From: Cyclobacteriaceae bacterium | GTDB lineage: Bacteria; Bacteroidota; Bacteroidia; Cytophagales; Cyclobacteriaceae | NCBI GenBank assembly: GCA_016786495.1 | Contig: JAEUUJ010000086.1 | Span: 1 to 64,000, forward strand | Direction: 5' to 3' | DNA length: 64,000 nucleotides | Part shown: positions 9,134 to 42,011 of the stretch, piece by piece | Layout: each line of letters starts with the position of its first letter | Position numbering within the stretch: position 1 is the first letter of the stretch | Notes under the pieces: model-generated | What the model was told of the DNA's origin: nothing | The model's database searches: none | The model's input: only the letters and a program-made list of their open reading frames with translations | Program-made: the position numbers and the translations under genes

Positions 9134-9151
9134 TGTGGAATATTTTCTACA
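9134..9151. promoter_or_regulatory. Stress-palindrome site 1 (TGTRGAA-N4-TTCTACA)
   Basis: TGTGGAATATTTTCTACA, an inverted repeat of two 7-base arms (six of seven paired) around 4 bases. It differs by one base from the site at 26099. It lies in the divergent spacer between the receiver genes at 9024 (minus) and 9209 (plus), directly next to a -24-like GTGGCATG. Confidence 0.6.
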
Positions 9152-9152
9152 G

Positions 9153-9168
9153 TGGCATGTGCTTGCTT
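9153..9168 (+). promoter_or_regulatory. -24/-12-like promoter element for the 9209 operon
   Basis: TGGCATG, three bases, then TTGC. The -12 box has the canonical TTGC, but the GG-to-GC spacing is one base shorter than the sigma-54 norm. A second candidate promoter is TTG at 9173-9175, 20 bases, then TACTTTTA at 9196-9203, close to the Bacteroidota -33/-7 pattern. Confidence 0.4.
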
Positions 9169-9208
9169 AGTATTGCGAGGCCACCGCTGAATCGCTACTT
9201 TTATACGT

Positions 9209-9658
9209 TTGAAACCCGAACGTTACATTCTTTTAGTAGACGATGATCCGGATGAGCACCTGTTGTTTCAGGATGCGTTGAAGGAATTGAAGCACGCGCC
9301 TGTGCTTTCGTATGCGCGTGACGGCCAGCAACTCATGCAACGTCTGAGTGCTGATGATGCGGAACTTCCGGCTATTATTTTTCTCGACCTGAATATGCCC
9401 CGTATGAACGGGTTTGAGTGTTTGCAGGAAATCCGGAAATCCGCGCGGCTCAACTCCATTCCCGTGGTGATCTTTTCTACCACTTCGCAGAATCAGGCGA
9501 TTGATAAAGTATATGAGCAGGGTGCGAATTATTACATTCGTAAACCCAATACATTCGCGATGTTGAAGGAAGTGATTGAGCGAATGCTCGAGATTGATTG
9601 GAGTACGCATCAACGTCAGACCCCGAAAGAGAACTTTGTGTTAAACAAGAACGGATGA
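9209..9658 (+). CDS. Response regulator receiver protein (Rcp1-like)
   Basis: A 149-residue single receiver domain with D11-D13, phosphoacceptor D60 in FLDLNMPRMNG and K112 in RKP; the last 20 or so residues are a polar tail. Short receivers of this type commonly sit beside phytochrome-like or PAS kinases. The start is TTG at 9209, because no ATG or GTG lies between the preceding sequence and the first beta strand. The stop overlaps the ATG of the kinase gene (ATGA at 9655), so the two proteins are translationally coupled and this receiver is the obvious partner of that kinase. Confidence 0.85.
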   Translation: MKPERYILLVDDDPDEHLLFQDALKELKHAPVLSYARDGQQLMQRLSADDAELPAIIFLDLNMPRMNGFECLQEIRKSARLNSIPVVIFSTTSQNQAIDKVYEQGANYYIRKPNTFAMLKEVIERMLEIDWSTHQRQTPKENFVLNKNG

Positions 9659-12600
9659 AGGCTGATTTTATTCCCAACAACGAGATGGGAAATCTTGTCC
9701 GTGAAAAAGATTGGAGCAAAACTCCGGTAGGTCCCATGGAGTCGTGGCCCCAAAGTTTGCGGACAACCTTAAGCATTATTTTAAATTCAAGATTCCCCAT
9801 GTTTTTGTGGTGGGGACCTGAACTGGTTTGTTTTTATAATGATGCCTATCGCCCGAGCCTGGGCGAAAATGGAAAGCACCCGCACATTCTCGGAATGCGT
9901 GCCCGGGAAGCGTGGCCGGAAATTTGGGACATTATCAAACCATTAATCGACAAGGTTCTTTCCGGTGAAGGAGCAACCTGGAGTGAAGATCAACTCATTC
10001 CCATTTTTCGAAACGGGAAAATTGAAGATGCCTACTGGACGTTCAGTTATAGTCCGGTGAACGATGAATCAGGCAAGGCTACTGCAGTACTCGTAACCTG
10101 TACAGAAACAACGCGCGAGGTGTTAAGCCGGAACTCCCTGTCGGAAAGCAACAGCCGTTTCATCAACGTTGTGCAGCAGGCCCCGGTAGGGATCGCCATC
10201 CTGCGCGGAAAAAACTTTACGTTCGAACTTACCAACAACGCCTACCTTCAATTCATCGATAAGCCCGCTACCGAAGTTGTGGGGCGGGATCTTTTTGATG
10301 TTTTGCCGGACGTAAAACCGGTAGTCGAACCGTTGCTCAACAATGTGATGACTTCCGGTAAACTCTATCACGCAAATGATCTGGAGGTTACGATCAGCCG
10401 GTATGGCAAGCGGGAAAAGGTTTATTTCAACTTTATTTATCAACCGCTTTTTGAGAACGGTACGGTTACCGGTGTTGTGGTTGTTGCGAACGAAGTAACT
10501 TCGATGGTTGAAGCGCGCCATGCGTTGGAGGAAAAACAACGGCAGTTCAGCAACTTCATCATGCAGTCGCCAATCGCGATGACGATCTGGCGCGGAAAAG
10601 ACTACGTGATTGAAATGGCCAATGAGACCATGTTTAAAACCATTTGGCGCAAAGAGCCAAAAGACGTGATTGGCCGGAAAGCGCTGGAAGTATTCCCGGA
10701 ATTAAACGATCAGAAGTACCCGGAATTACTGCGAAAAGTGCTGGTAACTGGTGGCATTCATCGCGAGAATGAATCGATGGCTTACGTGCGGGGAGATGAC
10801 GGGATGCGGAAGTTCTACCTCGACTTTGAATATGCTCCGCTTCTGGAGACTGATGGCAGCATTTCCGGAATCATGATCACGGTGTATGATGTAACTGAAA
10901 ATGTAGAATCGCGTCATAAACTCGAAGATGCAGAGTCGCGGATGCGCCTGGCGGTGGAAGCTACGGAATTGGCAACATGGGATCTCGACTTGAGAACGCG
11001 CGACATTATTCACTCTCCCCGGCTAGCGGTGATCTTCGGTCATCCCGAAACACGAGTCTTAACGCATTCCGAAATGCGCGAACAATTGCATCTGGACGAC
11101 CGGGTCGCGATTGTTGAAAAAGCAATGGAGCAGGCATTGAAGACCGGGAATTATAGCTACGAAGCACGTGTCATTCTTCCGGACCGTTCCGTGCGCTGGA
11201 TACGCACACGCGGCACGGTAGTGTTTGATCAAGACAAACAGCCCTTGCGCATGCTGGGTACGCTCATGGATGTGACAAGCATTCGGCTTGCAAGTGAGCA
11301 GAGTTCTAAACTGGCAGCCATTGTGGAATCTTCTGACGATGCGATTGTGAGTAAACAACTGGATGGAACCATTACAAGCTGGAACCGCGGGGCGGAAAGA
11401 CTTTTTGGCTATAAACCGGAAGAGATCGTTAGCCAGCCGATCACGCGACTTATCCCGCCGGACCGGCTGGGGGAAGAGCCTGCTATCATCGGCAGACTCA
11501 TGCGGGGCGAGCGCGTAGAACATATTGAGACGAAGCGGGTAACCAAAGATGGCCGGCTCATTGACGTTTCGTTAACGATATCACCGATTCGTGATCAATT
11601 TGGACGAATCATCGGAGCTTCGAAAATAGCGCGCGACATCAGCGTTCAGAAACGAGCGGAACGTGAAATGGAAGAAAGCCGGCTGCGTCTCGAAACGATT
11701 ATTGAAGCCAGCGCGCTTGGAACATGGGAACTTGATTTAGTTAGTGGTAAACCCCGTTATTCAGGCCGCTATCTTGAAATTCTTGGATTCAAACGAGACG
11801 AGACGCCAACTCATGCGGAGCTGTTGACGCGGCTTCATCCGGATGATTTTCCAATCCGTGATAAGGCATTCAAACAAGCTATGCAAACCGGTAAACTTTT
11901 TTACAGTGCAAGGCTCATTTGGCCCGACAAGAGCATTCGCTGGATGGAAGGCCGGGGCAACGTGTTTTTCGACAGCACTGGCAAGGCAGTTAAGATGACC
12001 GGAACCGTTCGCGACATCACGGAAGAGAAAGCATTCTCGCAGGCGTTGGAAACAATGGTTGATCAGCGTACGCGCGAACTTCAGCAAGTAAACACCGAAC
12101 TTGAGAAGATGAATCAGGAGCTCGCTTCGTTTGCCTACGTTTCCAGTCACGACTTACAGGAACCCTTGCGAAAGATTCAGGCTTTTGCATCCCGGATTCT
12201 CGAGAAAGAGCATCAGAACCTGTCGGCCGCAGGGCAGGATTATTTTTCCCGCATGCAGGAAGCAGCGCGCAGAATGCAGCTGCTCATCCAGGATTTGCTG
12301 GCGTACTCGCGCACCAATACAAAGGAGAAAGAACTTGTGCTTACCAACCTGAATGTGTTGGTAGCGGGTGTGATGGATGATTTGGAACAACAGATTCAGG
12401 AAACGGGAAGTACGATTAACATGGGAGATTTGCCCGAACTGGAAGTGATTCCTTTTCAATTCCGTCAGCTGTTCACAAACCTGATTGCTAATTCGCTGAA
12501 ATTCAGACGCACCGATGTCCCGTTGGTGATCGACATCCGGTCGGAAAAAGTGAAAGGATCCGAAATCGGTCAGGATTCCGCCACAGACGACTATTATTAT

Positions 12601-15192: not shown

Positions 15193-15193
15193 C

Positions 15194-21087: not shown

Positions 21088-22173
21088 TTAGCTTTTTTTG
21101 GTTACACGTTTGGGTTTTGATACGTTTTCTTCGTCTGACAAGAGTATTGCCCAGGCTTTCAACTCGGGCACCCGTTCGCAAATCACTTTCATCACTGCAA
21201 GCGCGGGGATGGCCAGAAACATTCCCGGTATTCCGCATATGGCTCCGCCTATTAAAATTCCAAGGATGGTTACCAACGCGTTTATCTTGACACGGTTCCC
21301 TACAATCATCGGCATTCCGAAGTTATTGTCGAGAAACTGTACAACTGCAAGAATCACACCGACCCAGATTACATCCGTGGGCGTATCAGAACTCACCAGT
21401 GTGATGAACATACAGATAATGTTGGCGGAAAGAATACCCACATACGGGATCAGGTTGAGGATAGCTGCCAGCAATGCCAGAAATACGGCATACTTGATTC
21501 CGAGAATCAGAAATCCGGCAACATTGAGTGCGAAAACGAGCGCGGTTTCGATCGACAGGCCAACAATGTAATGCTGGGCAACGTTCGTTGACTCATTAAG
21601 CACATCTTCTACTTTCTTTTCGCTGCCATTTCGGAACACATTCATCAGGAAGCTTTTGATCGTGTCTTTATAAAACAAAATCAGAAACGTATAGATCGGA
21701 ATAAGCACCACATAGGTTAGAATGTCGGTAACGGTAAGGAACGTTGCTCCAACCATTTTGGGCGCGTTGCTTTTTAAATTCTTGACAGTTTGATCGAGGT
21801 ATTTTTCCTGTTCCCGAACAGTAACGTTGGTTTGGTCGTCAATCCAGCGTTCAGCGGAAAGCTTCAGTTCGTCCACGCGTTCCGTAAGCGTGGGCAGGTC
21901 GTCAAAAAATTTAACAATCTGCTTGGAAAGCATAAACACCACCGAAAACACCAGGATAAGTGAGACTGCCAGCGGGAGCAGGATGGCGATCGGTCGGGGA
22001 AATTTTTTACGCAATAAGAACTTGTAAACCGGCAGCAGCAGCGTAGCCAGCAGAATAGAGAACAATACCGGCAATACCACATCCTTTCCAAGATACACCG
22101 CGGTTATCAATAACGCGATCGAAAGAAGATTAAGGCTTAAGCGATGGTAGAAGGGATGTTTGGCAGACTCCAT
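21088..22173 (-). CDS. AI-2E family transporter (permease)
   Basis: A 361-residue inner-membrane protein with about eight hydrophobic helices and the conserved C-terminal region of the AI-2 exporter/PerM family (IPYVGI at about 243 and FGMPMIVGNRVKINALVTIL near 300). Members include autoinducer-2 and sodium/proton exporters, so the substrate is unknown here. It is the first gene of the minus-strand run that continues to tamL. A -24-like element at 22200-22215 and a palindrome at 22265-22282 lie in the divergent spacer toward yihY. Confidence 0.82.
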   Translation of the reverse strand: MESAKHPFYHRLSLNLLSIALLITAVYLGKDVVLPVLFSILLATLLLPVYKFLLRKKFPRPIAILLPLAVSLILVFSVVFMLSKQIVKFFDDLPTLTERVDELKLSAERWIDDQTNVTVREQEKYLDQTVKNLKSNAPKMVGATFLTVTDILTYVVLIPIYTFLILFYKDTIKSFLMNVFRNGSEKKVEDVLNESTNVAQHYIVGLSIETALVFALNVAGFLILGIKYAVFLALLAAILNLIPYVGILSANIICMFITLVSSDTPTDVIWVGVILAVVQFLDNNFGMPMIVGNRVKINALVTILGILIGGAICGIPGMFLAIPALAVMKVICERVPELKAWAILLSDEENVSKPKRVTKKS

Positions 22174-22264: not shown

Positions 22265-22282
22265 TGTAGATTCTTTTCTACA
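22265..22282. promoter_or_regulatory. Stress-palindrome site 2
   Basis: TGTAGATTCTTTTCTACA, an inverted repeat with TGTAGA opposite TCTACA, in the spacer between the AI-2E gene (minus) and yihY (plus). The right arm is identical to the sites at 9134 and 26099. Confidence 0.6.
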
Positions 22283-23329: not shown

Positions 23330-23336
23330 TTCTACA
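23330..23336 (+). promoter_or_regulatory. TTCTACA half-site upstream of the hydrophilic-protein gene
   Basis: A single TTCTACA arm, identical to the right arm of the palindromes at 9134, 22265, 26099 and 41994. The left arm is not recognisable. It is about 65 bases upstream of the -24-like box at 23400. Confidence 0.35.
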
Positions 23337-25838: not shown

Positions 25839-25991
25839 TTAAACTCTGTCTCCGCGGATTAATCTTAACACGATAGCGATCACCGCGATCACCAAAAGGA
25901 TGTGGATCAGACCACCTGCGCTGTATACAAAGAAGCCAAAGATCCATCCGATGATCAGTATAACTGCAATGACATAAAGTAGATTGTTCAT
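25839..25991 (-). CDS. Lmo0937 family small membrane protein
   Basis: A 50-residue protein, MNNLLYVIAVILIIGWIFGF at the start and ending VLRLIRGDRV. Two hydrophobic helices with a short glycine-containing turn and a basic C-terminal RLIRG motif match the Lmo0937/DUF5670 family of tiny stress-linked membrane proteins. I found it by reading the minus strand of the spacer. The upstream spacer carries a perfect -24 box TGGCACG (26031-26037) that would place the transcript start about 20 bases before the ATG. Confidence 0.82.
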   Translation of the reverse strand: MNNLLYVIAVILIIGWIFGFFVYSAGGLIHILLVIAVIAIVLRLIRGDRV

Positions 25992-26021
25992 ATTGAGTGC
26001 GTTTAGTTTTTTTACCAAGGG

Positions 26022-26098: not shown

Positions 26099-26116
26099 TG
26101 TGGAATTTTTTCTACA
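26099..26116. promoter_or_regulatory. Stress-palindrome site 3
   Basis: TGTGGAATTTTTTCTACA, 17 of 18 bases identical to the site at 9134. It lies between two divergent -24-like elements: 62 bases from the minus-strand one (26037) and 40 bases from the plus-strand one (26156). Confidence 0.65.
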
Positions 26117-26396: not shown

Positions 26397-26762
26397 ATGA
26401 AAACGGCTTTAGTCGTCGACGATGAGCTGGATATCTGCCGCCTGCTAACCTTGCATTTGAAATCCCTCGGCCTGAATGCCGAGTATGTTTCAACGATTCG
26501 GGAAGCAAAAGCAAAGATTTCTCCGGCTGGTTACGATGTCATTTTTGTTGATCTGAATTTACCGGACGGGTCGGGTTTCGACCTGCTTGAATCCCTGAAT
26601 ACGATCAACTCCACCTCACGCGTCGTGGTCATCAGCGCATATGATGTTGAACGCAGAAAGGCTCTCGAATGCGGAGCCGATGGCTTCATTCCGAAGCCCT
26701 TTTCGAAACGAACAATAGAACTTGTTTTAAATAACCTCCACGTAATAAACCAACAGCTATGA
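26397..26762 (+). CDS. Response regulator receiver protein
   Basis: A 121-residue single receiver domain: D8, D9 and E10, phosphoacceptor D52 in FVDLNLPDGSG, and K100 in IPKPF. It has no output domain. It resembles the lone receiver at 8692-9024 (both have a LPDG motif after the phosphoacceptor). The last four bases overlap the ATG of the NtrC-type regulator (ATGA), so the two are made together, perhaps as competing or relaying phosphoacceptors for the same kinase. Confidence 0.85.
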   Translation: MKTALVVDDELDICRLLTLHLKSLGLNAEYVSTIREAKAKISPAGYDVIFVDLNLPDGSGFDLLESLNTINSTSRVVVISAYDVERRKALECGADGFIPKPFSKRTIELVLNNLHVINQQL

Positions 26763-28159
26763 TCGGAAGAATCCTGGTAATAGACGATGATAAGGACATG
26801 TGCCTTGTGCTCTCGAAATTCCTGACCAAGAATGACTATGAAGTAGATGTTGCTCACACCGGTGAAGCTGGTTTGAAACTGCTTCGCGATACGGAATACA
26901 TCCTCGTATTGTGCGACTACCGTTTGCCTGACATTACCGGGGTGGAGGCGCTCCAGAAAATCAAAGTGCTCAGTCCGGGTGTACCCGTGATCATTATTAC
27001 CGGTTATTCGGATGTTCGCACCGCAGTAGAAACCTTTCGCTATGGCGCGAGCGACTACGTGACCAAGCCGTTGTATCCCGATGAGTTATTGGTTACAATC
27101 CGAGAAACGATCTCCAAAAACAGTTCAAAAAATCAAGGAGTTGATAAAACTCAAAACGGAAAAGGAGATACGTCTAAGCAAAGCCGGGGATCCGCTCCAA
27201 AAGGACAAGAGTTTATCGTAGGCAAAAGCGTTCAATCGCAAACTGTTCAACGCTACGTGGAATTGATTGCGCCTTCCGATATGTCGGTGATTATCACCGG
27301 GGAAACCGGAACGGGTAAAGAGTTTGTTGCGCAGGCCATTCACCGGTTCAGCAACCGCTCCGATAAGGCATTCATTGCCATCGACTGCGGAGCGCTTCCG
27401 AAAGAACTTGCCGGCAGCGAGCTTTTCGGCCACGTAAAAGGCGCTTTTACCGGAGCGATTAACGATAAGCAGGGGAGTTTTGAAGTTGCCAACAACGGAA
27501 CGATTTTCCTGGACGAGATTGGAAACCTGTCTTACGAGAACCAGGTGAAGCTGCTTCGCGTGCTGCAGGAACGCAGAATCAAACGCATTGGCGCGACCCG
27601 CGATATTGCCATTGATGTGCGCATTATTGCCGCTACCAACGAAGATTTGAACAAAGCGGTGAAGGAGGGGCGCTTCCGCGAAGACCTTTACCACCGCCTG
27701 AATGAATTTAAAATCGCGCTTTCACCGTTGCGTGAGCGGAAAGAGGATATCCTTGTGTTTGCGGAGTATTTTCTTCAAAAAGCCAACGTGGCCCTGAACA
27801 AGAATGCCCGCGCGTTTTCACCGGAAGTGACCGACCAACTGCGCAATTACTACTGGCATGGAAACCTCCGCGAACTTAACAATGTGGTGAAACGGGCTGT
27901 GCTGTTAACGCAGGGTGAAACCGTTGAGATCGAGAGTTTGCCCCAGGAAATCGTTCATTCCATGGAAATGGCCGGCATCAATCAACATCACAACGAGGAG
28001 GTGAGCTTGCTTAAAAACATTGCAGGTTCGGCCGAACGCCAGGCGATTATCGATGTGCTGGAAAAAGTCAATTACAACAAGTCACGTGCGGCAGAGTTGA
28101 TGAACATCGACCGAAAGACGCTCTACAACAAACTGAAACTGTATAACATCAAGGCGTAG
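26759..28159 (+). CDS. Sigma-54-dependent response regulator, NtrC/AtoC family
   Basis: A 466-residue enhancer-binding protein. The receiver domain has D10, D11, phosphoacceptor D53 and K103. A polar linker (about 120-150) leads to an AAA+ domain with Walker A GETGTGKE (181-188), the sigma-54 contact loop GAFTGA (228-233) and Walker B GTIFLDEIGN (247-256). The C-terminal Fis-type helix-turn-helix is at about 430-466 (NKSRAAELMNIDRKTLYNKL). All parts needed to bind an upstream site and open a sigma-54 promoter are intact. It lies in the middle of the genes that carry the palindromes and -24-like boxes described here, so it is the best candidate to bind the palindrome. Probable kinases are at 31123 (NtrB-like) and 29267. 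Confidence 0.92.
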   Translation: MIGRILVIDDDKDMCLVLSKFLTKNDYEVDVAHTGEAGLKLLRDTEYILVLCDYRLPDITGVEALQKIKVLSPGVPVIIITGYSDVRTAVETFRYGASDYVTKPLYPDELLVTIRETISKNSSKNQGVDKTQNGKGDTSKQSRGSAPKGQEFIVGKSVQSQTVQRYVELIAPSDMSVIITGETGTGKEFVAQAIHRFSNRSDKAFIAIDCGALPKELAGSELFGHVKGAFTGAINDKQGSFEVANNGTIFLDEIGNLSYENQVKLLRVLQERRIKRIGATRDIAIDVRIIAATNEDLNKAVKEGRFREDLYHRLNEFKIALSPLRERKEDILVFAEYFLQKANVALNKNARAFSPEVTDQLRNYYWHGNLRELNNVVKRAVLLTQGETVEIESLPQEIVHSMEMAGINQHHNEEVSLLKNIAGSAERQAIIDVLEKVNYNKSRAAELMNIDRKTLYNKLKLYNIKA

Positions 28160-28423: not shown

Positions 28424-29119
28424 CTAGCGCATACTAAATGCGATGTACAATTGGGCGCATGAATTCTTTGCATCACCCACGAGGTCTTGCGCCTCATTTG
28501 AGTCTGCTAATTCTCTTAAGCCTTTTGAATACCGGACACCAATCTGTGTGGATCCGAAATTAAGCCCTACGCCACCGGCCAAACCGAAGTCCCACGAGCG
28601 GAAGCTGTCGCGGTCCAATTCATCGAAGGTGTCGGTATCCCCGTCAACGTCAATGTTAGCGCTCAATAAATAGCCCCAATATGGGCCAAAATGAAGTTCT
28701 GCAACCGATCCGAGTTTGAATACGGCCAATACAGGTACTTCCAGATAATTCAGGTTAAATTTAGCATCACCTTCACCCATCAACAGGTTGTCATATGTGG
28801 TGCGCGTGCCTTTTGTGGAATACAAAAGCTCTGGCTGAATGGCGAACACTTCAGACGAGAACAGCTGCGCATACAGACCCACGTTAAAGCCGAAGCGTGC
28901 GTTTTCATCGTCTACGTCATCTACATACAGGTTGCTGACGTTCAAGCCGCCTTTAATACCCGCCCGTGCGGTAGACGTTGTTGTTGTTTCGGTTGTAGTT
29001 GTTGTGGTGGTTGAATACGTGGTGCTGCTCGTATCCTGCGCCATGGCGAGGTTAGCGATAACACCCAAAAGGAAGATGAGTAAAAAACCCACTATGAGAA
29101 ATTTTGATTTTGAAAACAT
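28424..29119 (-). CDS. PorT-like outer-membrane beta-barrel protein
   Basis: A 231-residue protein with a Sec signal (cleavage near LAMAQ), a threonine-rich stretch of about 20 residues (TTTTTTTETTTTST), then an eight-strand-type barrel (GIKGGLNVSNLY, PELLYSTKGTR, YLEVPVLAVFKLG, AGGVGLNFG) ending in a strand. This fits the outer-membrane beta-barrel/PorT family common in Bacteroidota. Its promoter region carries a TGGCTC -24-like box and a palindrome at 29247-29264. A strong terminator follows. It sits between the regulator operon and the kinase genes and may be an envelope target or sensor, which is inference. Confidence 0.8.
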   Translation of the reverse strand: MFSKSKFLIVGFLLIFLLGVIANLAMAQDTSSTTYSTTTTTTTETTTTSTARAGIKGGLNVSNLYVDDVDDENARFGFNVGLYAQLFSSEVFAIQPELLYSTKGTRTTYDNLLMGEGDAKFNLNYLEVPVLAVFKLGSVAELHFGPYWGYLLSANIDVDGDTDTFDELDRDSFRSWDFGLAGGVGLNFGSTQIGVRYSKGLRELADSNEAQDLVGDAKNSCAQLYIAFSMR

Positions 29120-29246: not shown

Positions 29247-29264
29247 TGTAGAAACGTGTCCACA
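29247..29264. promoter_or_regulatory. Stress-palindrome site 4
   Basis: TGTAGAAACGTGTCCACA, an imperfect copy of TGTRGAA-N4-TTCYACA, in the divergent spacer. It ends two bases before the kinase start at 29267, so it more likely serves the barrel gene, whose -24-like box is 83 bases away. Confidence 0.5.
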
Positions 29265-29266: not shown

Positions 29267-31090
29267 ATGAAGAATATTTACATTAGGTTCATATTTTTAT
29301 CCACGCTGATCGTGCTGATATTCATCAGCCTGATGACGTACCGTAACCTCAACAATTATATCAACGAGGTTAAGCTCGTTCGCCACTCGAGCGTGGTGTT
29401 CAGGCTGGTCGAAAATGTGTTGTCTGCCGTGAAAGATGCGGAAACCGGTCATCGCGGTTTTCAACTAACCAAAGATTCCAGTTACCTCGAGCCCTATCAC
29501 GCGTCTATCCGCGAGCTGCCGGATATGTTGCGCGACCTTGATAGCCTCGTTCAGGACAATTTTTTGCAAAGCCGGCATGTGGATACGCTGCAGTTGCTCA
29601 TCAACGATCAGTATCTGCTCATCAGTCGCATTCTTTCCAATGCCGAGCGAAGTTCCTTGTACATGGACCGTTACGAAAGTAAACTGCTAAAGGATGGTAA
29701 GGAAAACATGACGCGCATCCGGAATGTCATTAGCAGAATCCGAAGCGTGGAAGAAGAGCTTTATACCAACCGAATCGCTACGGAGGAAGGCTACCGAAAC
29801 ATTGCACCGTTTTCACTCCTCGCATTCTCCATCATCTCGGTGTTCGGAGTAGCATTTTTGTTTTCGCGTGTGATGGGTGCGCTTGACCAGAAACGAATGG
29901 CTGAAATTGGCTTGAAAGAAAATTTAAAGACGCTGGAGCGGGAAGTATCCGAGAAACAATTCGCCCAGCGTACGATCCAGAATATTCTTGATCACTCGCT
30001 TGACGGAATCATGGCGTTTTCCTCCGTGCGTGACGAGCAGGGTGAGATTGTCGACTTTCAGTGGTTGTTAGCCAACTTCATCAGTGCGCAAACGCTCGGC
30101 CGCGGCAAAGGCGATCTTGCCGGTAAGCGACTGCTGGACGTGGTGCCGGATGCTAAAAAATCTGGATTGTTTCAGATTTATAAGGGTGTTGTGGATACCA
30201 GTGTCTCCCAGCAGTTCGAACGTGAGTTTGATTTTTCCGGCGAAGTAAGGTGGTTTTATATGGCTGCGGTGAAGCTCGATGATGGGCTCATCGTAACGTA
30301 TACCGATGTAACCGAGAAAAACGTAGCGGAATCCAGGCTTACACAATATGCGGAAGAACTGAAGCGCTCCAATCAGGACCTGGAGCAATTTGCGTATGTA
30401 GCGTCACACGACCTACAGGAACCGCTTCGGAAGATTCGCGCGTTTGGCGATCGGCTTGCCGCACGGTATGAAGATAAACTTGATGAAGTAGGCGTAGAGT
30501 ACATCAGCCGCATGCAGCAAGCGTCTGCCCGCATGCAAAAATTGATCGAGGATCTCTTGTCGTTCTCGCGCATCTCAAGCGGGCATGATCAATTCGCGCG
30601 GGTAGATCTTACCGCGGTTGTCAACGAAGTGGTGGATGATATCGAAGGTCAGATTCTCCGGGAGAAGGCAAAGGTGGGTGTACGGGAGATCGCAGAGATA
30701 ACGGGTGATCGGGGTCAGATCAGACGGTTGTTTCAAAACCTCATCAGCAATGCAATCAAATTTCATAAACCGGGAGCCTTGCCGGTGGTGGAAATTTTCG
30801 GAAGTGTTGTGACGGGCACTGAAGCTGAGAAAGAATTTGGATTTCCGCTTTCCGAAAGTTCATACGTTCGGATTGTTGTGAAAGACAACGGCATCGGCTT
30901 CGATGAGAAATACGCAGAAAAGATATTTAATATTTTCCAGCGCCTGCAGGGCAGGGCGGAATATGAAGGAACCGGTATCGGTCTTGCGATCTGCCGGAAA
31001 ATTATGTCGAACCACCGTGGATATATCCGGGCCCAAAGCGTGATCAACGAAGGTTCGGAATTTATCCTCATATTCCCATACGCCCGGTAA
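29267..31090 (+). CDS. CHASE3-PAS sensor histidine kinase
   Basis: A 607-residue membrane kinase. Helix 1 (about 8-24) and helix 2 (181-201) flank a CHASE3 extracytoplasmic domain with the typical AVKDAETGHRGFQLT segment near 54-68. A PAS domain (about 235-345) leads to HisKA with YVASHDLQEPLRK (H381) and an ATPase with DNGIGFD (near 540) and GTGIGLA (near 568). It senses an envelope or external signal. The catalytic half is very similar in layout to the kinase at 9655. The REC-kinase gene begins 32 bases downstream, so the pair is probably co-transcribed. Confidence 0.9.
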   Translation: MKNIYIRFIFLSTLIVLIFISLMTYRNLNNYINEVKLVRHSSVVFRLVENVLSAVKDAETGHRGFQLTKDSSYLEPYHASIRELPDMLRDLDSLVQDNFLQSRHVDTLQLLINDQYLLISRILSNAERSSLYMDRYESKLLKDGKENMTRIRNVISRIRSVEEELYTNRIATEEGYRNIAPFSLLAFSIISVFGVAFLFSRVMGALDQKRMAEIGLKENLKTLEREVSEKQFAQRTIQNILDHSLDGIMAFSSVRDEQGEIVDFQWLLANFISAQTLGRGKGDLAGKRLLDVVPDAKKSGLFQIYKGVVDTSVSQQFEREFDFSGEVRWFYMAAVKLDDGLIVTYTDVTEKNVAESRLTQYAEELKRSNQDLEQFAYVASHDLQEPLRKIRAFGDRLAARYEDKLDEVGVEYISRMQQASARMQKLIEDLLSFSRISSGHDQFARVDLTAVVNEVVDDIEGQILREKAKVGVREIAEITGDRGQIRRLFQNLISNAIKFHKPGALPVVEIFGSVVTGTEAEKEFGFPLSESSYVRIVVKDNGIGFDEKYAEKIFNIFQRLQGRAEYEGTGIGLAICRKIMSNHRGYIRAQSVINEGSEFILIFPYAR

Positions 31091-31122: not shown

Positions 31123-32568
31123 ATGAGACAACATATACGTGTTCTGCTGATTGAAGATGACGAAGATGATGTAATGCTGGCGAAGGAATACTTGTCAGAC
31201 AGTGAAAACTTTAAGTTTGAACTGGAGTGGATTGCCGAAACCGACAAGGCGCGCGAAAAAATGACTGAAAACGCGCACGATGTGATTCTGGTAGATTACC
31301 GGTTGGGCAGTGAAACCGGGCTTGATCTCATCAAATATGCGCAGGAAAAAGGAGTGTTAACACCGTGTATCTTGCTGACGGGACAGGGCGATTTAAAAGT
31401 TGACATTGACGCAAGCCGGTTTGGTGCAGCAGATTATCTGGTGAAAACTGATCTTGATGCATCCATGCTTGAGCGAAGTATTCGGTACGCGCTTTCGCAG
31501 TCGCACGTAATCCGCGAGCTGGATGAAAAGGAGAAGAAATACCGGTCGCTGTTCGAACGATCAATTGACCCGATCTTCCTGGCGAACATCAACTTTAAGC
31601 TGCTGGATGTAAACGAGTCGTTCCTGAATTTTTTTGGTTACTCGGATGAGGAGTCGCGTGCGCTGGGGTTATCACAAATTTTCGCTGACGGGAATGATTA
31701 CGAATATTTACTGTCGGAACTTAAGCAAGAAGAACAGGTCAAAGATTTTGAAGTCGTGCTGGTGAACAGCAGGGGTGAGAAAAGAATCTGCATGATCAAC
31801 TGTGTGTTTATCCCCGATCAGAGTTCCGATTTTTGCTGCTACCAGGGAATTATCTATGACCTGACGTTACGCAAGAAAGCAGAGAAAGACATGCTGGTGG
31901 CCGAACGTTTGTCCATGACGGGTAAACTCGCCAGAACCATTGCGCACGAAGTGCGAAATCCGCTAACCAACCTGAACCTCGCGCTGGAACACCTGCGCGA
32001 TGAAATGCCGAAGGATAACGAGTCTGTAAAGCTTTACAGCGAGATCATTGAGCGAAATGCAAAGCGCATCGATACGCTGATCACGGAGATGTTAAATTCT
32101 TCCAAACCGAAAGATTTGAATCTGGAGCTGGCGGATGTAACCGACATTCTGAACGAAACGATCGCGCTGGCTACCGATAGTATCAACCTGAATCAGATTA
32201 AGCTGAAGAAAACGTTTCAAGAGAATCTTCCGCGCATATTGGTAGATCGGGAGAAGCTGAAGATTGCTTTCCTGAACATCATCGTGAATGCCATCGAAGC
32301 CATGGAGCGCGGTACAGGCGAACTCTCGGTGGATGTGAAGCGCGTGGAGCACACCATCGTTGTCACGATTTCGGATAACGGAAAGGGAATTCCTGCTGAG
32401 GATATTGAGAAACTGTTCGATCCCTTCTTCACCGAAAAGCCCGGTGGCATGGGCCTTGGGTTGACGTCAACCAAAAATATCATCAGCAGCCATAACGCTG
32501 CCATTGAAGTGGAAAGCAAGGTACAGAAGGGCACCTCGTTTATTATCTATTTTAAGCTGGCAGAGTAA
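31123..32568 (+). CDS. REC-PAS-histidine kinase (NtrB-like transmitter)
   Basis: A 481-residue soluble protein. The N-terminal receiver has D11-D13, phosphoacceptor D58 and K108. A PAS domain (about 135-255) with an atypical cysteine pair (FCCYQG) follows, then a HisKA domain with TIAHEVRNPL (H275) and an ATPase with N-box FLNIIVNAIEAME and DNGKGIP. The HEVRNPLTNL box is of the NtrB type, unlike the SHDLQEPLRK boxes of the other two kinases, so it is the likeliest partner of the NtrC-type regulator at 26759. The receiver may accept phosphate from the kinase at 29267, giving a relay. The stop TAA abuts the stop of the convergent DUF4142 gene without spacer. Confidence 0.9.
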   Translation: MRQHIRVLLIEDDEDDVMLAKEYLSDSENFKFELEWIAETDKAREKMTENAHDVILVDYRLGSETGLDLIKYAQEKGVLTPCILLTGQGDLKVDIDASRFGAADYLVKTDLDASMLERSIRYALSQSHVIRELDEKEKKYRSLFERSIDPIFLANINFKLLDVNESFLNFFGYSDEESRALGLSQIFADGNDYEYLLSELKQEEQVKDFEVVLVNSRGEKRICMINCVFIPDQSSDFCCYQGIIYDLTLRKKAEKDMLVAERLSMTGKLARTIAHEVRNPLTNLNLALEHLRDEMPKDNESVKLYSEIIERNAKRIDTLITEMLNSSKPKDLNLELADVTDILNETIALATDSINLNQIKLKKTFQENLPRILVDREKLKIAFLNIIVNAIEAMERGTGELSVDVKRVEHTIVVTISDNGKGIPAEDIEKLFDPFFTEKPGGMGLGLTSTKNIISSHNAAIEVESKVQKGTSFIIYFKLAE

Positions 32569-34792: not shown

Positions 34793-34845
34793 AAATTATT
34801 GAGTTTAGTTGATGAATGTGATTTTAATATGTCTGGAAGATTTAT

Positions 34846-35388: not shown

Positions 35389-35406
35389 TGTAGAATGTTC
35401 TCCCCG
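35389..35406. promoter_or_regulatory. Stress-palindrome site 5 (variant)
   Basis: TGTAGAATGTTCTCCCCG. It matches 15 of 18 bases of the reverse complement of the 41994 site (TGTAGAAAGTTCTCCACC), so these two form a subclass in which GAA and TTC are two bases apart. Confidence 0.45.
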
Positions 35407-35612: not shown

Positions 35613-35873
35613 ATGAACGCAAAAAGTCTAATCGGAGGATTACTCGCAGGGGCAGCACTCGGTGTTGCCGCAGGCATTCTTCTCGCACCCGCAAGCGGTG
35701 CACAAACCCGTAAAAGCCTGGTGAAAGGTTCTGCTAAGTTGAAAGACGAACTATTGAGTTCTGTAGAAGAGTCGCTTGATGCGCTCCGCGAACAGTTCAA
35801 TTCAAAAATCGATCGCCTCGCAAAGCAGGGAAAGGAAACCATCAACCACACCAGTGAACGCGTAAAAGTTTAA
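35613..35873 (+). CDS. YtxH domain-containing protein
   Basis: An 86-residue protein with an N-terminal glycine/alanine-rich membrane helix followed by [14 protein letters not shown], the YtxH signature, and an amphipathic tail ([21 protein letters not shown]). Paralogue of the gene at 20831. It is the first gene of a probable operon with csbD (19 bases downstream), the coiled-coil lipoprotein and the OmpA-family gene. A -24/-12-like element precedes it. Confidence 0.85.
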
Positions 35874-35892
35874 CACTAAAACAATCATCACC

Positions 35893-36078
35893 ATGAACAA
35901 ACTTGAATTGAAGGGAACCTGGAACGAAGCTAAAGGCAAACTGAAGCAGAAATACGGTGAGCTCACCGATGATGATTTGACGTTTGCGGAAGGCAAGGAA
36001 GATGAATTGCTCGGCCGTTTGCAGAAACGCCTGGGTAAGACAAAGGAAGATATCAGAAAAGAACTGGCCGATTTATAG
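35893..36078 (+). CDS. CsbD family stress protein
   Basis: A 61-residue protein with the CsbD signature: [22 protein letters not shown] followed by [19 protein letters not shown] (read from residues 8-29 and 33-51). CsbD is a sigma-B-dependent general-stress protein in Bacillus with no known activity. Here it lies behind ytxH and ahead of two envelope genes. An imperfect hairpin (36093-36117) follows the stop. Confidence 0.92.
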
Positions 36079-36092
36079 TCAGTGTACAGGAT

Positions 36093-36117: not shown

Positions 36118-36153
36118 AACACCCTGTCAGTAAAACAACCAAAACAACCGAAT

Positions 36154-37277: not shown

Positions 37278-37314
37278 CATCCGGCATAACATTACACATT
37301 TAACAATCCATACA

Positions 37315-37342
37315 GGCTGCCCGATTCGGACGGCCTTTTTTT
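37315..37342 (+). terminator. Rho-independent terminator of the ytxH-ompA operon
   Basis: GGCTGCCCGA / TCGGACGGCC arms, with two imperfect pairs, followed by seven T, just ahead of the oxidoreductase gene. Confidence 0.75.
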
Positions 37343-37352
37343 ATCCTTTCAT

Positions 37353-38555: not shown

Positions 38556-38661
38556 CGGGGAACCGGGGATTTTCCTACACAACCTTGCGTTTGATTGGCG
38601 CTAAAACAAAGGTTTGCGTTCGGTATTCATTTTGATCGATAGATCAAAAAACAACACACCT

Positions 38662-39246: not shown

Positions 39247-39267
39247 GGTCGCGAATCGAATCCAGTA

Positions 39268-39297
39268 AAAGCTATCGGAACCGGTAGCTTTTTTTTA
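39268..39297 (+). terminator. Rho-independent terminator of the DUF892 gene
   Basis: AAAGCTATCGG / CCGGTAGCTTT arms followed by eight T. Confidence 0.85.
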
Positions 39298-39315
39298 TTG
39301 GATCTATCTACAGCT

Positions 39316-39335
39316 TTGGGAATATTATTCCCCAA
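39316..39335. promoter_or_regulatory. Imperfect inverted repeat upstream of the 39413 gene
   Basis: TTGGG and CCCAA arms around an A/T-rich centre containing GGAATATT, the left part of the 9134 palindrome. A half-site ATCTACA lies at 39306-39312 and a second bulged repeat (GTAAA...TTTAC) at 39343-39360. Spacing to the -24-like box is about 38 bases. Confidence 0.35.
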
Positions 39336-39372
39336 TAAACATGTAAAACAGTCTGTTTACGCTGTTTTTTTG

Positions 39373-39388
39373 TGGCAGTGAATTTTCT
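39373..39388 (+). promoter_or_regulatory. -24/-12-like promoter of the 39413 gene
   Basis: TGGCAGT-N4-TTTC with normal sigma-54 spacing; TTTC replaces TTGC. Predicted start near 39399, about 14 bases before the ATG at 39413. Confidence 0.5.
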
Positions 39389-39412
39389 ATACATACTGCA
39401 AAAACGAAGGCT

Positions 39413-39763
39413 ATGAAAACGATAACAAATACCCCCGAAACCATGACAACCTTAACGTCTTGCATGAACACGGCCGTGCTTGACGGATATACGGAAAGTT
39501 TTAAGGTGGAAGGTAAGGGCCTTACGGGAGCCTCGACCTCCGATCAGAAGTTCTATGGACCTTCCGAGGTGAAAATTGATAACTTCTATCGGTTCGAAGG
39601 ATATTCCGATCCGAACGACAATTCAATTTTGTATCTCTTGCAAACCTCCGATGGTCGCAAAGGAACATTGGTGGATTCTTATGGAATGTATTCAGACAAT
39701 AAGATATCCGAATTCATTAAGTCGGTTGAAGAGATTCAAAAGAAAGACAAGACACACAATTAA
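39413..39763 (+). CDS. Conserved Bacteroidota short protein
   Basis: A 116-residue cytoplasmic protein with the pattern DGYTESF ... YGPSEVKIDNFYRFEGYSDP ... ILYLLQTSDGRKGTLVDSYG. This resembles a short Bacteroidota family that is often mislabelled phosphoribosylpyrophosphate synthetase; it has none of that enzyme's PRPP-binding motif. Real function unknown. Start could be the first ATG or MTTLTSCM nine codons later. A -24/-12-like element 14 bases before the first ATG favours the first. Confidence 0.72.
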   Translation: MKTITNTPETMTTLTSCMNTAVLDGYTESFKVEGKGLTGASTSDQKFYGPSEVKIDNFYRFEGYSDPNDNSILYLLQTSDGRKGTLVDSYGMYSDNKISEFIKSVEEIQKKDKTHN

Positions 39764-39774
39764 GTTGTAATGTT

Positions 39775-39963
39775 ATGAGCCGGTTTTTGAGGAGCAGGAT
39801 GTCGGAGTTGAGAAAGGTTAAAACGGAACCGATTTGGTTAAGTTTTACCAATATGGGGTACGGATATGTGAATAACGACTGGCTCCTCATTATCCGCTCA
39901 TTTTTCATGATACTGCTGGCTATCGGTATGGTGGGCTTTCAATCGTCCGGCATCAACTCCTAA
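39775..39963 (+). CDS. Small membrane-anchored protein, 62 residues
   Basis: A basic N-terminal region (MSRFLRSRMSELRKVK) is followed by a soluble middle and one C-terminal hydrophobic helix (about 40-57). No family recognised. It lies 11 bases after the 39413 gene and six before topoisomerase IB, which favours a real gene in the same operon. Confidence 0.55.
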   Translation: MSRFLRSRMSELRKVKTEPIWLSFTNMGYGYVNNDWLLIIRSFFMILLAIGMVGFQSSGINS

Positions 39964-39969
39964 ACAACC

Positions 39970-41055
39970 ATGGTAGCCGCAGCTAACGTATCGCGGGTAG
40001 CATCAAGCCGCCTGCACCGCGATTATAAATTTACGGCCAAGGTTGCCAGCCTTCAATACGTTTCCGATTCTGCGCCCGGTATTCTGCGGATAAAAAAAGG
40101 AACCGGCTTTTCATATCGCTTTAGCAGCGGAGAACTCGTCAAAAGCAAAGACATTCTTATCCGGATAAAAAAGCTGGTAATTCCGCCCGCCTGGACAAAC
40201 GTTTGGATTTCCGACAAAGCGGACGGTCATATCCAGGCAACAGGTTTTGATGTTCGTAACCGCAAACAATACAAGTATCACCCTCAATGGAGCGAGGTGC
40301 GAAATCAAACCAAGTTTCATCGGCTGCTGGAATTCGGAAAACACCTTCCTGCACTCCGGAAAAAGATTGAGGCTGACCTGGGTTCGTCCAGCTTGTCGAA
40401 GGATAAAGTGCTGGCTACCATTGTGAGTCTCATGGAGAAAACATTTATCCGTGTGGGTAACAGCGAATATGAAAAATTGTACGGCTCGTATGGCCTTACT
40501 ACGCTGAAAGACGGTCATGTAAAAATTAACGGTGGCACAATTGCCTTTTCGTTCAAGGGAAAGAAGGGGATACACCACGCCATTAGCTTAAAAAATAAAA
40601 GGCTCGCCAAAATTGTAAAAGCTTGTCGGGACATACCCGGAAAGGAGCTCTTCCAATACATCAATGAACAGGGTGAACGGTGTACAGTCGATTCCGGTAT
40701 GGTGAACAACTACATCCGGGAGGCTACCGGCAATGATTTCACGGCGAAAGATTTCCGAACCTGGGCCGGGTCACTTACCGTACTTTCGTGCTTTAAAAAT
40801 CTCGGTCCGTGCGAGAGCGAGCCGCAGGTAAAAAAGAACGTTGTTGCGGCACTTGATGAGGTAAGCATGAAACTGGGTAACACGCGAACAGTTTGCCGGA
40901 AATATTATGTGCACCCTGGAATCGTGAAACTGTATGAGGAGCAAAGCCTGACGCGATATTTAAAAGAGCTGGAAGAAACCACGGAAGCTGAAGATTCAAT
41001 CGAGCTAACGTGTGAGGAAAAAGTGTTGATGCGAATTCTTAAAAAACTTGGATAG
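39970..41055 (+). CDS. DNA topoisomerase IB, poxvirus type
   Basis: A 361-residue type IB topoisomerase that relaxes supercoils through a 3'-phosphotyrosyl intermediate. The catalytic domain shows VGNSEYEKLYGSYGLTTL, FKGKKGIHHAI, the FRTWAGS helix and VCRKYYVHP, where the second tyrosine (Y313) is the likely nucleophile. Size matches bacterial poxvirus-like enzymes (about 340-380). Bacterial copies are sporadic and often sit with stress genes. It seems to be the third gene of the operon starting at 39413 and is followed six bases later by the iron-permease-like gene. Confidence 0.88.
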   Translation: MVAAANVSRVASSRLHRDYKFTAKVASLQYVSDSAPGILRIKKGTGFSYRFSSGELVKSKDILIRIKKLVIPPAWTNVWISDKADGHIQATGFDVRNRKQYKYHPQWSEVRNQTKFHRLLEFGKHLPALRKKIEADLGSSSLSKDKVLATIVSLMEKTFIRVGNSEYEKLYGSYGLTTLKDGHVKINGGTIAFSFKGKKGIHHAISLKNKRLAKIVKACRDIPGKELFQYINEQGERCTVDSGMVNNYIREATGNDFTAKDFRTWAGSLTVLSCFKNLGPCESEPQVKKNVVAALDEVSMKLGNTRTVCRKYYVHPGIVKLYEEQSLTRYLKELEETTEAEDSIELTCEEKVLMRILKKLG

Positions 41056-41061
41056 CGGGTT

Positions 41062-41523
41062 ATGGCAGTGAAAACAGTTGAGTGCTCTCCGTTGGGACGA
41101 GTCTTTAATAAGATCTCAAACGCGGCAACAAAAGCTGCAGGACGGCCGGTTGCGTCCATTATCGCTATGAGTATCGTTATCATTTGGGCTCTGGTCGGAC
41201 CAATATTCGATTATTCCAATACATGGCAGCTTGTTATCAATACCGGAACAACGATTATTACGTTCCTGATGGTGTTTGTGATCCAGCAATCGCAGAATAA
41301 AGATACGGTGGCAATTCACCTGAAGTTAAATGAACTGATTGCTTCACAGAAAAACGCCAGCAATCGCCTGATTGATATTGAAGATTTGACGGAAGAGGAG
41401 TTGGAGGTGTTGAAGAAGTTTTATGTGAAGCTTTCGAAGATCGCACTAAAGCAGAATGACCTCTACAGCTCGCATTCGATCGATGAAGCAGAAGAAATTG
41501 GCAAAAAAAAGAAGGCTGGTTAG
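41062..41523 (+). CDS. Low-affinity iron permease family protein
   Basis: A 153-residue protein with two helices (about 31-48 and 58-76), the segment FDYSNTWQLVINTGTTIITFLMVFVIQQSQNKDT (conserved in the Fet4-like family) and a charged cytoplasmic tail (LKLNELIASQKNASNRLIDIE). Bacterial members are not proved iron transporters. It follows topoisomerase IB closely. Its last codons (KKKKAG) are read from the reverse complement of the terminator of the convergent gene. Confidence 0.78.
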   Translation: MAVKTVECSPLGRVFNKISNAATKAAGRPVASIIAMSIVIIWALVGPIFDYSNTWQLVINTGTTIITFLMVFVIQQSQNKDTVAIHLKLNELIASQKNASNRLIDIEDLTEEELEVLKKFYVKLSKIALKQNDLYSSHSIDEAEEIGKKKKAG

Positions 41524-41528
41524 CCTTC
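41503..41528 (-). terminator. Rho-independent terminator of the lipocalin-like gene
   Basis: On the minus strand GAAGGCT / AGCCTTC with a 4-base loop followed by eight T. It has nearly the same stem as the terminator at 24198 and lies in the 3' end of the iron-permease-like gene. Confidence 0.85.
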
Positions 41529-41545
41529 TTCGTGTTAACATCAAT

Positions 41546-41917
41546 TTACTGTCGTTGTCGAACAGCGGTAATAGCCACCCCGGACTCACGCTTCTTTTTG
41601 GGATTGGTACGCGTGAGTGTTAGCACACCTTTTTTCACAACCGCTTTCCATTCCGCCAGCGACTTTTCACCATCCTCAATAACCACGGTTGATGTTGTTT
41701 CGTTTGTTCTGTACAATGCATGCACCGAACCCATTGGCTGGCCCGAACTTACAAACTTGCCGTCATCGCTGAAGTGCAGTGTTCCGGGCGTGACGCTTTT
41801 TGCATTCGGGGTAATTTTAGTGATGGTCCAATGACCTTTTAAAGAGTCAAGCAGGTTTTGTGCAAAAGCAGTTTGCAGGCTTGCCAGCAATACTGCGGTT
41901 ATCAGAAGTCGTTTCAT
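41546..41917 (-). CDS. Secreted lipocalin-like protein
   Basis: A 123-residue protein with a Sec signal (cleavage after TAFAQ) and a lipocalin-like start of the barrel (LLDSLKGHWTITKI, LHFSDDGKFVSSG). ATG 41917 (MKRLLITA) gives the signal peptide; the frame start at 41935 adds six odd residues. A very good -24 box with TTTC -12 box lies 23 bases upstream of the start codon. Function unknown; probably a small periplasmic or surface lipocalin. Confidence 0.75.
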   Translation of the reverse strand: MKRLLITAVLLASLQTAFAQNLLDSLKGHWTITKITPNAKSVTPGTLHFSDDGKFVSSGQPMGSVHALYRTNETTSTVVIEDGEKSLAEWKAVVKKGVLTLTRTNPKKKRESGVAITAVRQRQ

Positions 41918-41938
41918 AGTATGTTTTTCCGACACAGG

Positions 41939-41954
41939 TGAAAACTCCGTGCCA
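41939..41954 (-). promoter_or_regulatory. -24/-12-like promoter of the lipocalin-like gene
   Basis: On the minus strand TGGCACG-N4-TTTC with exact sigma-54 spacing. Predicted start near 41929, leader about 12 bases. Palindrome 6 is 40 bases upstream. It is the best -24/-12 match in the window. Confidence 0.6.
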
Positions 41955-41993
41955 TGCCGGAAAGCCGTTTTTTACTAACCTTGGCAAAGAACG

Positions 41994-42011
41994 GGTGGAG
42001 AACTTTCTACA
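41994..42011. promoter_or_regulatory. Stress-palindrome site 6
   Basis: GGTGGAGAACTTTCTACA on the plus strand, TGTAGAAAGTTCTCCACC on the minus strand. It lies 40 bases upstream of the lipocalin-like -24 box, a typical enhancer distance, between this gene and the phospholipase D gene. Confidence 0.55.

What the first reader, a model, noticed from the sequence alone, without database searches (positions are those of the whole stretch)
9134..42011. Recurrent 18-bp palindrome ahead of stress and signalling genes
Six intergenic sites share an inverted repeat of the form TGTRGAA-N4-TTCTACA: 9134, 22265, 26099, 29247, 35389 (variant) and 41994. The 9134 and 26099 sites are identical at 17 of 18 bases. 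All six lie in divergent spacers, and none was noticed inside a gene. Isolated TTCTACA half-sites occur at 23330 and 35420. Genes beside them encode receivers, an NtrC-type regulator, envelope proteins and stress proteins. This looks like the binding site of one regulator, best candidate the NtrC-type protein at 26759.
Basis: partly seen in the sequence, partly recalled or inferred. Interest (0 to 1): 0.8.

Follow-up and report, generated by a model that had tools for sequence, protein, structure and literature searches.

The report
Enhancer sites of a stress regulator
A short mirror-image DNA sequence repeated between genes here is most likely the docking site of one activator protein that switches on a set of membrane and stress genes, and the same arrangement recurs in related bacteria.

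Summary
The palindromes are real. Four sites (9134, 22265, 26099, 29247) match TGTRGAA-N4-TTCYACA with at most one mismatch, against 0.03 expected. 41994 is weaker; 35389 is a poor match.

The motif travels with the NtrC-type regulator at 26759. Around 22 orthologues there are 31 strong sites against none in reversed sequence; 24 outgroup loci have one. A site lies within 600 bp upstream of the regulator operon in 16 of 23 regions. Of 49 strong sites, 30 have a sigma-54-like promoter pointing away at 20-140 bp, against 12 of 585 random intergenic points. Elsewhere in relatives' genomes, 13 of 31 sites flank homologues of this window's genes.

Best reading: the enhancer of a self-regulated, sigma-54-dependent envelope and stress regulon driven by the 26759 response regulator. 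Binding is not shown. Loose genome-wide counts in the own genome show no excess over control (8 vs 6; 31 vs 63). New member of a known kind.

The parts
9134..9151 (.). Palindrome TGTGGAATATTTTCTACA, strongest site of the window (matrix score 25.9); divergent spacer between receiver genes 8692-9045 (-) and 9209-9658 (+)
   Evidence: On the 8692 side a sigma-54-like TGGTAAGGTTTTTAGCTA lies 70 bp away (7 of 12 consensus positions); the G024 homologue of the 8692 gene (66% identical) has a palindrome and TGGTAAGGTTTTTATC also 70 bp away (counted by eye).
22265..22282 (.). Palindrome TGTAGATTCTTTTCTACA between AI-2E transporter (21088-22173, -) and BrkB (22354/22384-23316, +)
   Evidence: Score 17.2, third in the window. 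5 of 6 AI-2E copies of at least 59% identity have a site >=15 within 200 bp upstream; the own genome's second copy (61%) has none; 1 of 24 more distant copies has one.
26099..26116 (.). Palindrome TGTGGAATTTTTTCTACA upstream of the regulator operon, and upstream of DUF5670/lmo0937 gene 25839-26018 (-)
   Evidence: Score 25.4, second in the window. Sigma-54-like TGGCACGCTTTTTAGCCC 61 bp away on the DUF5670 side (9 of 12) and TGGCATGATTTTTCTTTT 39 bp away on the regulator side (8 of 12).
29247..29264 (.). Palindrome TGTAGAAACGTGTCCACA; likely acts on the outer-membrane barrel gene 28424-29119 (-), since it ends two bases before the ATG of the kinase at 29267
   Evidence: Matrix score only 8.5, tenth, but TGGCTCAAGATTTACAGC (9 of 12) lies 82 bp away on the barrel side, and a relative's barrel gene (55% identical) has a site upstream (L308).
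35389..35406 (.). Weak variant TGTAGAATGTTCTCCCCG ahead of YtxH-CsbD (35613-36078, +)
   Evidence: Score 6.5, rank 15. TGGCACATGCTTTTCTTC (9 of 12) 127 bp away. G093 has a similarly degenerate site 50 bp before its YtxH/CsbD promoter.
41994..42011 (.). Palindrome GGTGGAGAACTTTCTACA between 41546-41935 (-) and the phospholipase-D-like gene 42018-43235 (+)
   Evidence: Score 11.3, rank 7. TGGCACGGAGTTTTCACC, 11 of 12 positions, 39 bp away toward 41546-41935.
39317..39334 (.).
   Evidence: Score 14.5, rank 5; TGGCAGTGAATTTTCTAT 38 bp away (8 of 12); a homologue of 39413 in G076 (33% identical) also has a site upstream (L317). One reversed-window control position scores 17.4, so the score alone does not prove it.
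44349..44366 (.).
   Evidence: Score 16.8, rank 4. TGGCACAATTTCTATCAT 71 bp away (7 of 12). MlaE homologues in three other genomes carry the motif upstream (L299, L316, L324), in L324 also 71 bp from a TGGCACG element.
26397..26762 (+). Receiver-only response regulator, first gene of the regulator operon
   Evidence: Pfam Response_reg; a homologue precedes the NtrC-type gene in 21 of 22 related regions.
26759..28159 (+). NtrC-type response regulator: receiver, sigma-54-interaction AAA+ domain, Fis-type HTH; proposed binder of the palindromes
   Evidence: Pfam Response_reg, Sigma54_activat, HTH_8; 24-row alignment A1; tree.
29267..31090 (+). CHASE3-PAS histidine kinase, probable input
   Evidence: Pfam; conservation in neighbourhoods. 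Partnership is inferred.
31123..32568 (+). Receiver-PAS histidine kinase, probable partner kinase
   Evidence: Pfam; homologue of at least 41% identity in 19 of 22 related regions. Partnership is inferred.

Best explanation
The palindrome TGTRGAA-WWWW-TTCYACA is the upstream activating sequence (enhancer) bound by dimers of the NtrC-type response regulator encoded at 26759-28159. When phosphorylated through the neighbouring kinases (29267, 31123), the regulator contacts sigma-54 RNA polymerase waiting at a TGGCAYR-N4-TTTTCA-type promoter about 40-130 bp away, sometimes on both sides of a divergent spacer. It thereby turns on its own operon and a set of envelope and stress genes (AI-2E/BrkB, DUF5670, outer-membrane barrel, YtxH-CsbD, MlaE operon and others). 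Shown here by computation: the motif's non-random occurrence, its tie to this regulator's clade, the promoter geometry and the shared targets. Inferred: physical binding, activation rather than repression, the kinase partners and the inducing signal (envelope or osmotic stress).
For: Window counts far above simulation. In 23 orthologue regions the motif (<=2 mismatches) lies between genes 33 times, against 1 each for a reversed and a permuted control. Sites >=17: 31 vs 0 reversed in 22 related regions (mostly the sites the matrix was trained on), 1 in 24 outgroup loci, 1 in 44 loci of other phyla. Upstream of the regulator operon in 16 of 23 regions, reversed 0. Outward sigma-54-like promoters at 30 of 49 sites vs 0 of 49 inward and 12 of 585 random intergenic points; spacings phased at about 11.0 bp; one RpoN gene in the genome. 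Away from the regulator, 51 vs 14 reversed in 25 genomes, 32 of 40 fetched places intergenic, 13 of 31 sites beside homologues of window genes. Palindrome-to-promoter spacing equal in the window and G024 for the 8692 receiver (70 bp) and MlaE (71 bp). The regulator has receiver, sigma-54 AAA+ and Fis-type HTH domains.
Against: No binding or expression data. Own-genome loose counts do not exceed the reversed control (8 vs 6; 12 vs 11; 31 vs 63 for the 16-base core). Exact N4 matches over 98 genomes: 14 vs 15 reversed; 9 vs 5 in the 25 genomes with the orthologue and 5 vs 10 in the other 73 (my sums). At one mismatch the 25 orthologue genomes sum to 145 vs 148 reversed (my sums). The reversed window has one position scoring 17.4. 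The 7 regions without a site >=15 upstream of the operon include four with nothing above 5 (L056, L068, L071, L072) and L073 with none above 0. Upstream of CsbD, sites >=15 occur in 8 of 30 loci with the orthologue and 3 of 30 without. Several window promoters match the consensus poorly. The genomes are related, so sites are not independent.
Confidence: 0.8

Rival explanations
1. The palindrome is the enhancer of a sigma-54 activator, but of a different one of the many NtrC-type proteins in the genome; the 26759 operon is only one of its targets.
For: At least 16 NtrC-like matches were scored in the own genome, and three CsbD loci in genomes without a close orthologue also carry sites; each lies within 10 kb of a paralogue of about 50% identity. 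The sister clade also has some sites (4 vs 1 reversed at >=17 in 7 loci).
Against: Sites cluster around 26759 orthologues and not around outgroup paralogues, and 16 of 23 regulator operons have one upstream.
Confidence: 0.12
2. The palindrome is the operator of an unrelated dimeric repressor or activator working with the primary sigma factor; the sigma-54-like elements nearby are coincidental.
For: An 18-bp two-fold site is typical of many dimeric regulators (general knowledge); some window sites have only mediocre sigma-54-like partners.
Against: Outward sigma-54-like elements at 30 of 49 sites against 12 of 585 random intergenic points. In the window proteins run against Pfam, the only DNA-binding transcription-factor domain found was HTH_8 of 26759 (not every ORF was scanned).
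Confidence: 0.06
3. A chance or composition effect in AT-rich spacers.
For: Own-genome counts at loose thresholds do not exceed the reversed control.
Against: Markov simulation, reversed and permuted controls and conservation at the same genes in relatives.
Confidence: 0.01

Closest known systems
NtrC/NtrB-type sigma-54 enhancer systems (NtrC, AtoC, ZraR)
   Same: Same domain order (receiver, AAA+, Fis-type HTH) and predicted enhancer-to-promoter layout. Best NCBIfam hits of the regulator are AtoC, NtrC, LuxO and ZraR models, and of kinase 31123 AtoS and ZraS models. The best PDB match by sequence is an NtrC-family regulator, 4l4u.
   Different: No named equivalog cut-off is reached. The site TGTRGAA-N4-TTCYACA differs from the NtrC and ZraR sites that I recall (recalled, not from a call), and the target genes are different.
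Sigma-54 regulon of Flavobacterium psychrophilum (PMC9723704; passages and section 15 part 1 read)
   Same: Bacteroidota; -24/-12 promoters; chaperone, protease, envelope and outer-membrane genes, induced partly by high osmotic pressure; the authors expect distinct activators.
   Different: In the parts read, no enhancer site is reported and no activator is assigned; 'CsbD' and 'palindrom' do not occur in the main text. The gene set shown overlaps only in kind (AsmA-family and OmpA-like proteins).
Multi-phylum sigma-54 promoter survey (PMC12316311; passages seen)
   Same: Predicts sigma-54 control of stress and chaperone functions in Bacteroidota by promoter matrices.
   Different: The passages seen concern promoters, not activator sites; 'CsbD' has 0 occurrences.

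Membership tests
NtrC-family bacterial enhancer-binding proteins | Receiver domain, sigma-54-interaction AAA+ domain and Fis-type HTH | tested here: met
   Response_reg 96.1 bits, Sigma54_activat 231.4 bits, HTH_8 42.8 bits, all above cut-off.
NtrC-family bacterial enhancer-binding proteins | GAFTGA loop that contacts sigma-54 | tested here: met
   GAFTGA reads directly in the 26759 protein and most of the 24 aligned rows (GSFTGA or GAYTGA in some).
NtrC-family bacterial enhancer-binding proteins | Binds a two-fold site upstream of a sigma-54 promoter | not testable with these tools
   Indirect only: site clustering and promoter geometry.
Sigma-54-dependent promoters | -24/-12 elements with the standard spacing, with sigma-54 in the genome | tested here: met
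   30 of 49 sites vs 12 of 585 random points; RpoN DNA-binding domain found once, 192.6 bits. In the window itself the matches are mixed, 7 to 11 of 12 positions, and the -12 element reads mostly TTTCA rather than TTGCA.
NtrC, AtoC or ZraR as named equivalogs | Score above the curated NCBIfam cut-off | tested here: not met
   NtrC 384.7 of 558.6, AtoC 407.5 of 714, ZraR 374.9 of 760.

The most novel reading that the evidence does not exclude
Cytophagales and some other Bacteroidota run a dedicated envelope and general-stress regulon through sigma-54 and one autoregulated response regulator, in the role played elsewhere by sigma-B, sigma-S or EcfG. Its enhancer sits on a preferred face of the helix (about 11-bp phasing) only 40-130 bp from the promoter, and it can serve two divergent promoters at once.
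Probability: 0.4. Interest if true: 0.65.

Novelty: new member of a known kind. Interest (0 to 1): 0.52.

Why it matters
Sigma-54 strictly needs activators, and in the Bacteroidota papers seen here the activators' sites were not assigned. This gives one activator, its likely site, its promoter geometry and a list of likely targets conserved across genera, so an experiment in one tractable strain could test it. It also groups several genes of unknown function (DUF5670, DUF1328, DUF2383, YtxH, CsbD, the 39413 family) as likely parts of one response, and it shows how a regulon too small to stand out in one genome appears once relatives are compared.

Tried and rejected
De novo counting of exact 6-bp dyads in the 23 regions put AT-rich dyads first, with TGTGGA-N6-TCCACA and TGTAGA-N6-TCTACA found in only two regions each. 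No Rfam match at gathering score and no tRNA in the window. The repeat finder on seven spacers found nothing. The TGGCATG copies that directly abut the 9134 palindrome were first taken as its promoters and then set aside: too close, and the candidate shared with G024 is TGGTAAGGTTTTTA at 70 bp. A pattern TGGYAYRN4TTTCA in the own genome gave 5 matches against 4 for the control over both strands, so the promoter element alone is not usable genome-wide. CsbD loci were a weak discriminator. The first phasing test used a hand-copied, incomplete list of distances and is replaced. Literature: of eight searches, searches found no paper, searches listed 1, 2 and 1, one search listed 15 of 100 and one search listed 10 of 239; only two papers were opened (PMC9723704, PMC12316311). 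No title in these listings names this motif or regulon; that is not proof of absence elsewhere.
Full report
What was checked. The six reported sites were re-read from the sequence. Two match the pattern exactly, two have one mismatch on at least one strand, 41994 has two and 35389 three. With the symmetric form TGTRGAAN4TTCYACA the window holds 2, 4 and 6 places at <=0, <=1 and <=2 mismatches, against simulated means of 0.003, 0.03 and 0.75 (300 simulations, none reaching the observed counts). All six lie in divergent spacers. In the own genome, 4 of the 8 places with at most one mismatch are in this window. Of the other four, C1:72018 and C56:178213 are inside kinase-like genes beside response-regulator genes (the first by BLAST; the second by eye), and C83:57461 and C58:16174 fall in short, doubtful reading frames. 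C58:16174 lies upstream of a gene that by eye resembles the window's barrel gene 28424.

Setting. Pfam shows a cluster of envelope and stress genes: AI-2E transporter, BrkB, YtxH (two), a holin-X-like protein (below its cut-off), DUF748 (below its cut-off), DUF5670, outer-membrane barrel, DUF4142, DUF2383 (two), DUF1328, DUF2267, CsbD, glycine-zipper OmpA, DUF892, topoisomerase IB, a phospholipase-D-like protein and MlaE/MlaD genes. Among them stand a receiver-only protein (26397), an NtrC-type response regulator (26759), a CHASE3 kinase (29267) and a receiver-PAS kinase (31123). The nearest named relative of the regulator is from Chryseolinea serpens, 76% identical.

Relatives. The regulator was searched in 98 genomes of the same family. 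I took 24 other genomes as having the orthologue, by a gap I judged in the hit list at about 52% identity. The window protein and 23 of these were aligned (24 rows, 52-76% identity), and regions of 14-20 kb were fetched around 20 of the 24 (G046, G063, G086 and G087 not fetched). Chryseolinea serpens (L074) and Algoriphagus (L079) were added from a scan of named genomes, which kept only the best 80 loci, making 22 related regions plus the window. A tree of 54 proteins puts these in one clade (98/93) that also holds three distant Flavobacteriales rows, one on a long branch; a seven-row sister clade follows.

The motif follows the regulator. In the 23 regions (first 45 kb of the window used), the motif with at most two mismatches occurs 33 times between genes and 7 times inside them; the reversed pattern occurs 1 and 5 times, a permuted dyad 1 and 7 times. 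In 34 other Bacteroidota loci, which include the three distant rows and the sister clade, the motif occurs 7 and 10 times, the reversed pattern 0 and 15, the permuted dyad 4 and 16. A matrix from 27 intergenic sites of relatives, window excluded, ranks the window's positions 9134, 26099, 22265, 44349, 39317, 27760 (inside the regulator gene), 41994, 26194, 23319, 29247; 35389 is fifteenth. One reversed-window position scores 17.4 and one 11.9, so single scores in the range 11-17 need other support. Counts of sites >=17, forward against reversed: 31 vs 0 in the 22 related regions (largely the training sites), 1 vs 0 in 3 distant orthologue loci, 4 vs 1 in 7 sister-clade loci, 1 vs 0 in 24 outgroup loci, 1 vs 0 in 44 loci of other phyla.

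Autoregulation. Within 600 bp upstream of the regulator operon a site >=15 is present in 16 of 23 regions and >=11 in 18; reversed sequence gives 0 and 1. Five regions (L056, L068, L071, L072, L073) have nothing above 5 there.

Promoter geometry. For 49 distinct intergenic sites with score >=15 (from the 23 regions plus 16 further loci that I picked because they carried, or lay by, such sites), the best match to the textbook sigma-54 element TGGCACGN4TTGCA (recalled) was sought 20-140 bp away. At least 9 of 12 positions are matched pointing away from the site in 30 of 49, pointing toward it in 0 of 49, and in 12 of 585 random intergenic points. The commonest letters at the 29 elements found in the strictest setting read TGGCA(T/C)G-N4-TTTCA. 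Distances cluster with a period of about 11.0 bp; jittered distances reach this clustering with frequency 0.0043 or less in four threshold settings of 3000 trials each. Relatedness among genomes makes this nominal. The genome has one RpoN match.

Shared targets away from the regulator. In 25 genomes (own included), the A/T-centred pattern with at most one mismatch has 51 places against 14 reversed (sums mine). The A/T centre was chosen after seeing the relatives' matrix, and the 73 genomes without the orthologue were not searched with it. Forty of the 51 were fetched; the other 11 lie in the window or in regions already held. By a simple ORF rule 32 of 40 are intergenic, and 13 of those 32 have a promoter match of >=9, against 0 of 8 genic ones. 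Forty-one neighbouring proteins at 31 sites were compared with 41 window proteins: 15 match, at 13 sites. They include MlaE three times, the outer-membrane barrel, both YtxH types, AI-2E, TamB-like, DAO, DUF2383, OmpA, the 39413 family and the 8692 receiver (66% identical). Leaving out two-component proteins it is 12 of 41, against 6 of 93 in a rough background from which the 20 AI-2E queries were removed. The MlaE and 39413 homologues support the two new window sites 44349 and 39317. For the receiver 8692 and for MlaE, the palindrome-to-promoter spacing is the same in the window and in G024: 70 bp (the latter counted by eye) and 71 bp. Five of six AI-2E copies of at least 59% identity have a site >=15 within 200 bp upstream (two of them training sites); of 24 more distant copies one has.

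Results against. The own genome alone shows no excess: 8 vs 6, 12 vs 11, and for the 16-base core 31 vs 63 reversed. Exact N4 matches over 98 genomes sum to 14 vs 15 reversed, of which the 25 orthologue genomes have 9 vs 5 and the other 73 have 5 vs 10 (sums mine). With one mismatch the 25 orthologue genomes sum to 145 vs 148 (sums mine). CsbD loci carry upstream sites >=15 in 8 of 30 (one a training site) in genomes with the orthologue and 3 of 30 without; each of the three lies within 10 kb of a ~50% paralogue, so recognition may extend beyond the close orthologues. The own genome's second AI-2E copy has none. Several window promoters are mediocre.

Mechanism. The anatomy fits a standard enhancer system: two-fold sites for a Fis-type helix-turn-helix dimer, a GAFTGA AAA+ domain to open sigma-54 complexes, and divergent spacers with a promoter on one or both sides. 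The kinases 29267 and 31123 are the likely inputs: a homologue of 31123 at >=41% identity lies beside the regulator in 19 of 22 related regions and a homologue of 26397 in 21 of 22. The stimulus is not known; envelope or osmotic stress is inferred from the gene set and from the Flavobacterium psychrophilum sigma-54 regulon (PMC9723704, section 15 part 1 read).

Known or new. The regulator has the domains of the NtrC family but reaches none of the cut-offs of the 25 NCBIfam models shown of 115 hit. Eight library searches listed no paper whose title names this motif or regulon; two papers were opened. It is a new member of a known kind.

Noticed in passing
47731-50142: A glycoside hydrolase family 2 enzyme appears split over two consecutive ORFs (47731-49350 and 49402-50142), which carry the N-terminal/catalytic and the C-terminal GH2 domains; possibly a broken or frameshifted gene.
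   Followed up: no
8692-9045: This receiver protein matches only 81 of 111 receiver positions and its ORF overlaps the end of a 2944-aa ORF.
   Followed up: no
G065 (same genus as the window's genome): The one other genome of the same genus searched has only a 50% regulator relative and no CsbD match, so the module seems lost or never gained there.
   Followed up: partly
L079:9864-9905: Algoriphagus carries two tandem palindromes 24 bp apart ahead of the regulator operon.
   Followed up: partly
L263 and L264 (own genome C60:62007 and C60:76977): Two strong intergenic sites outside the window (scores 24.0 and 22.0): one before a receiver-like protein (by eye), one beside a putative secreted or outer-membrane protein with TGGCATGAATATTAGTGC 41 bp away; likely further regulon members.
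   Followed up: partly
L088:9493: A Fluviicola contig (Crocinitomicaceae, another order) has TGTAGAAAATATTCTACA between genes about 500 bp before its distant relative of the regulator.
   Followed up: no
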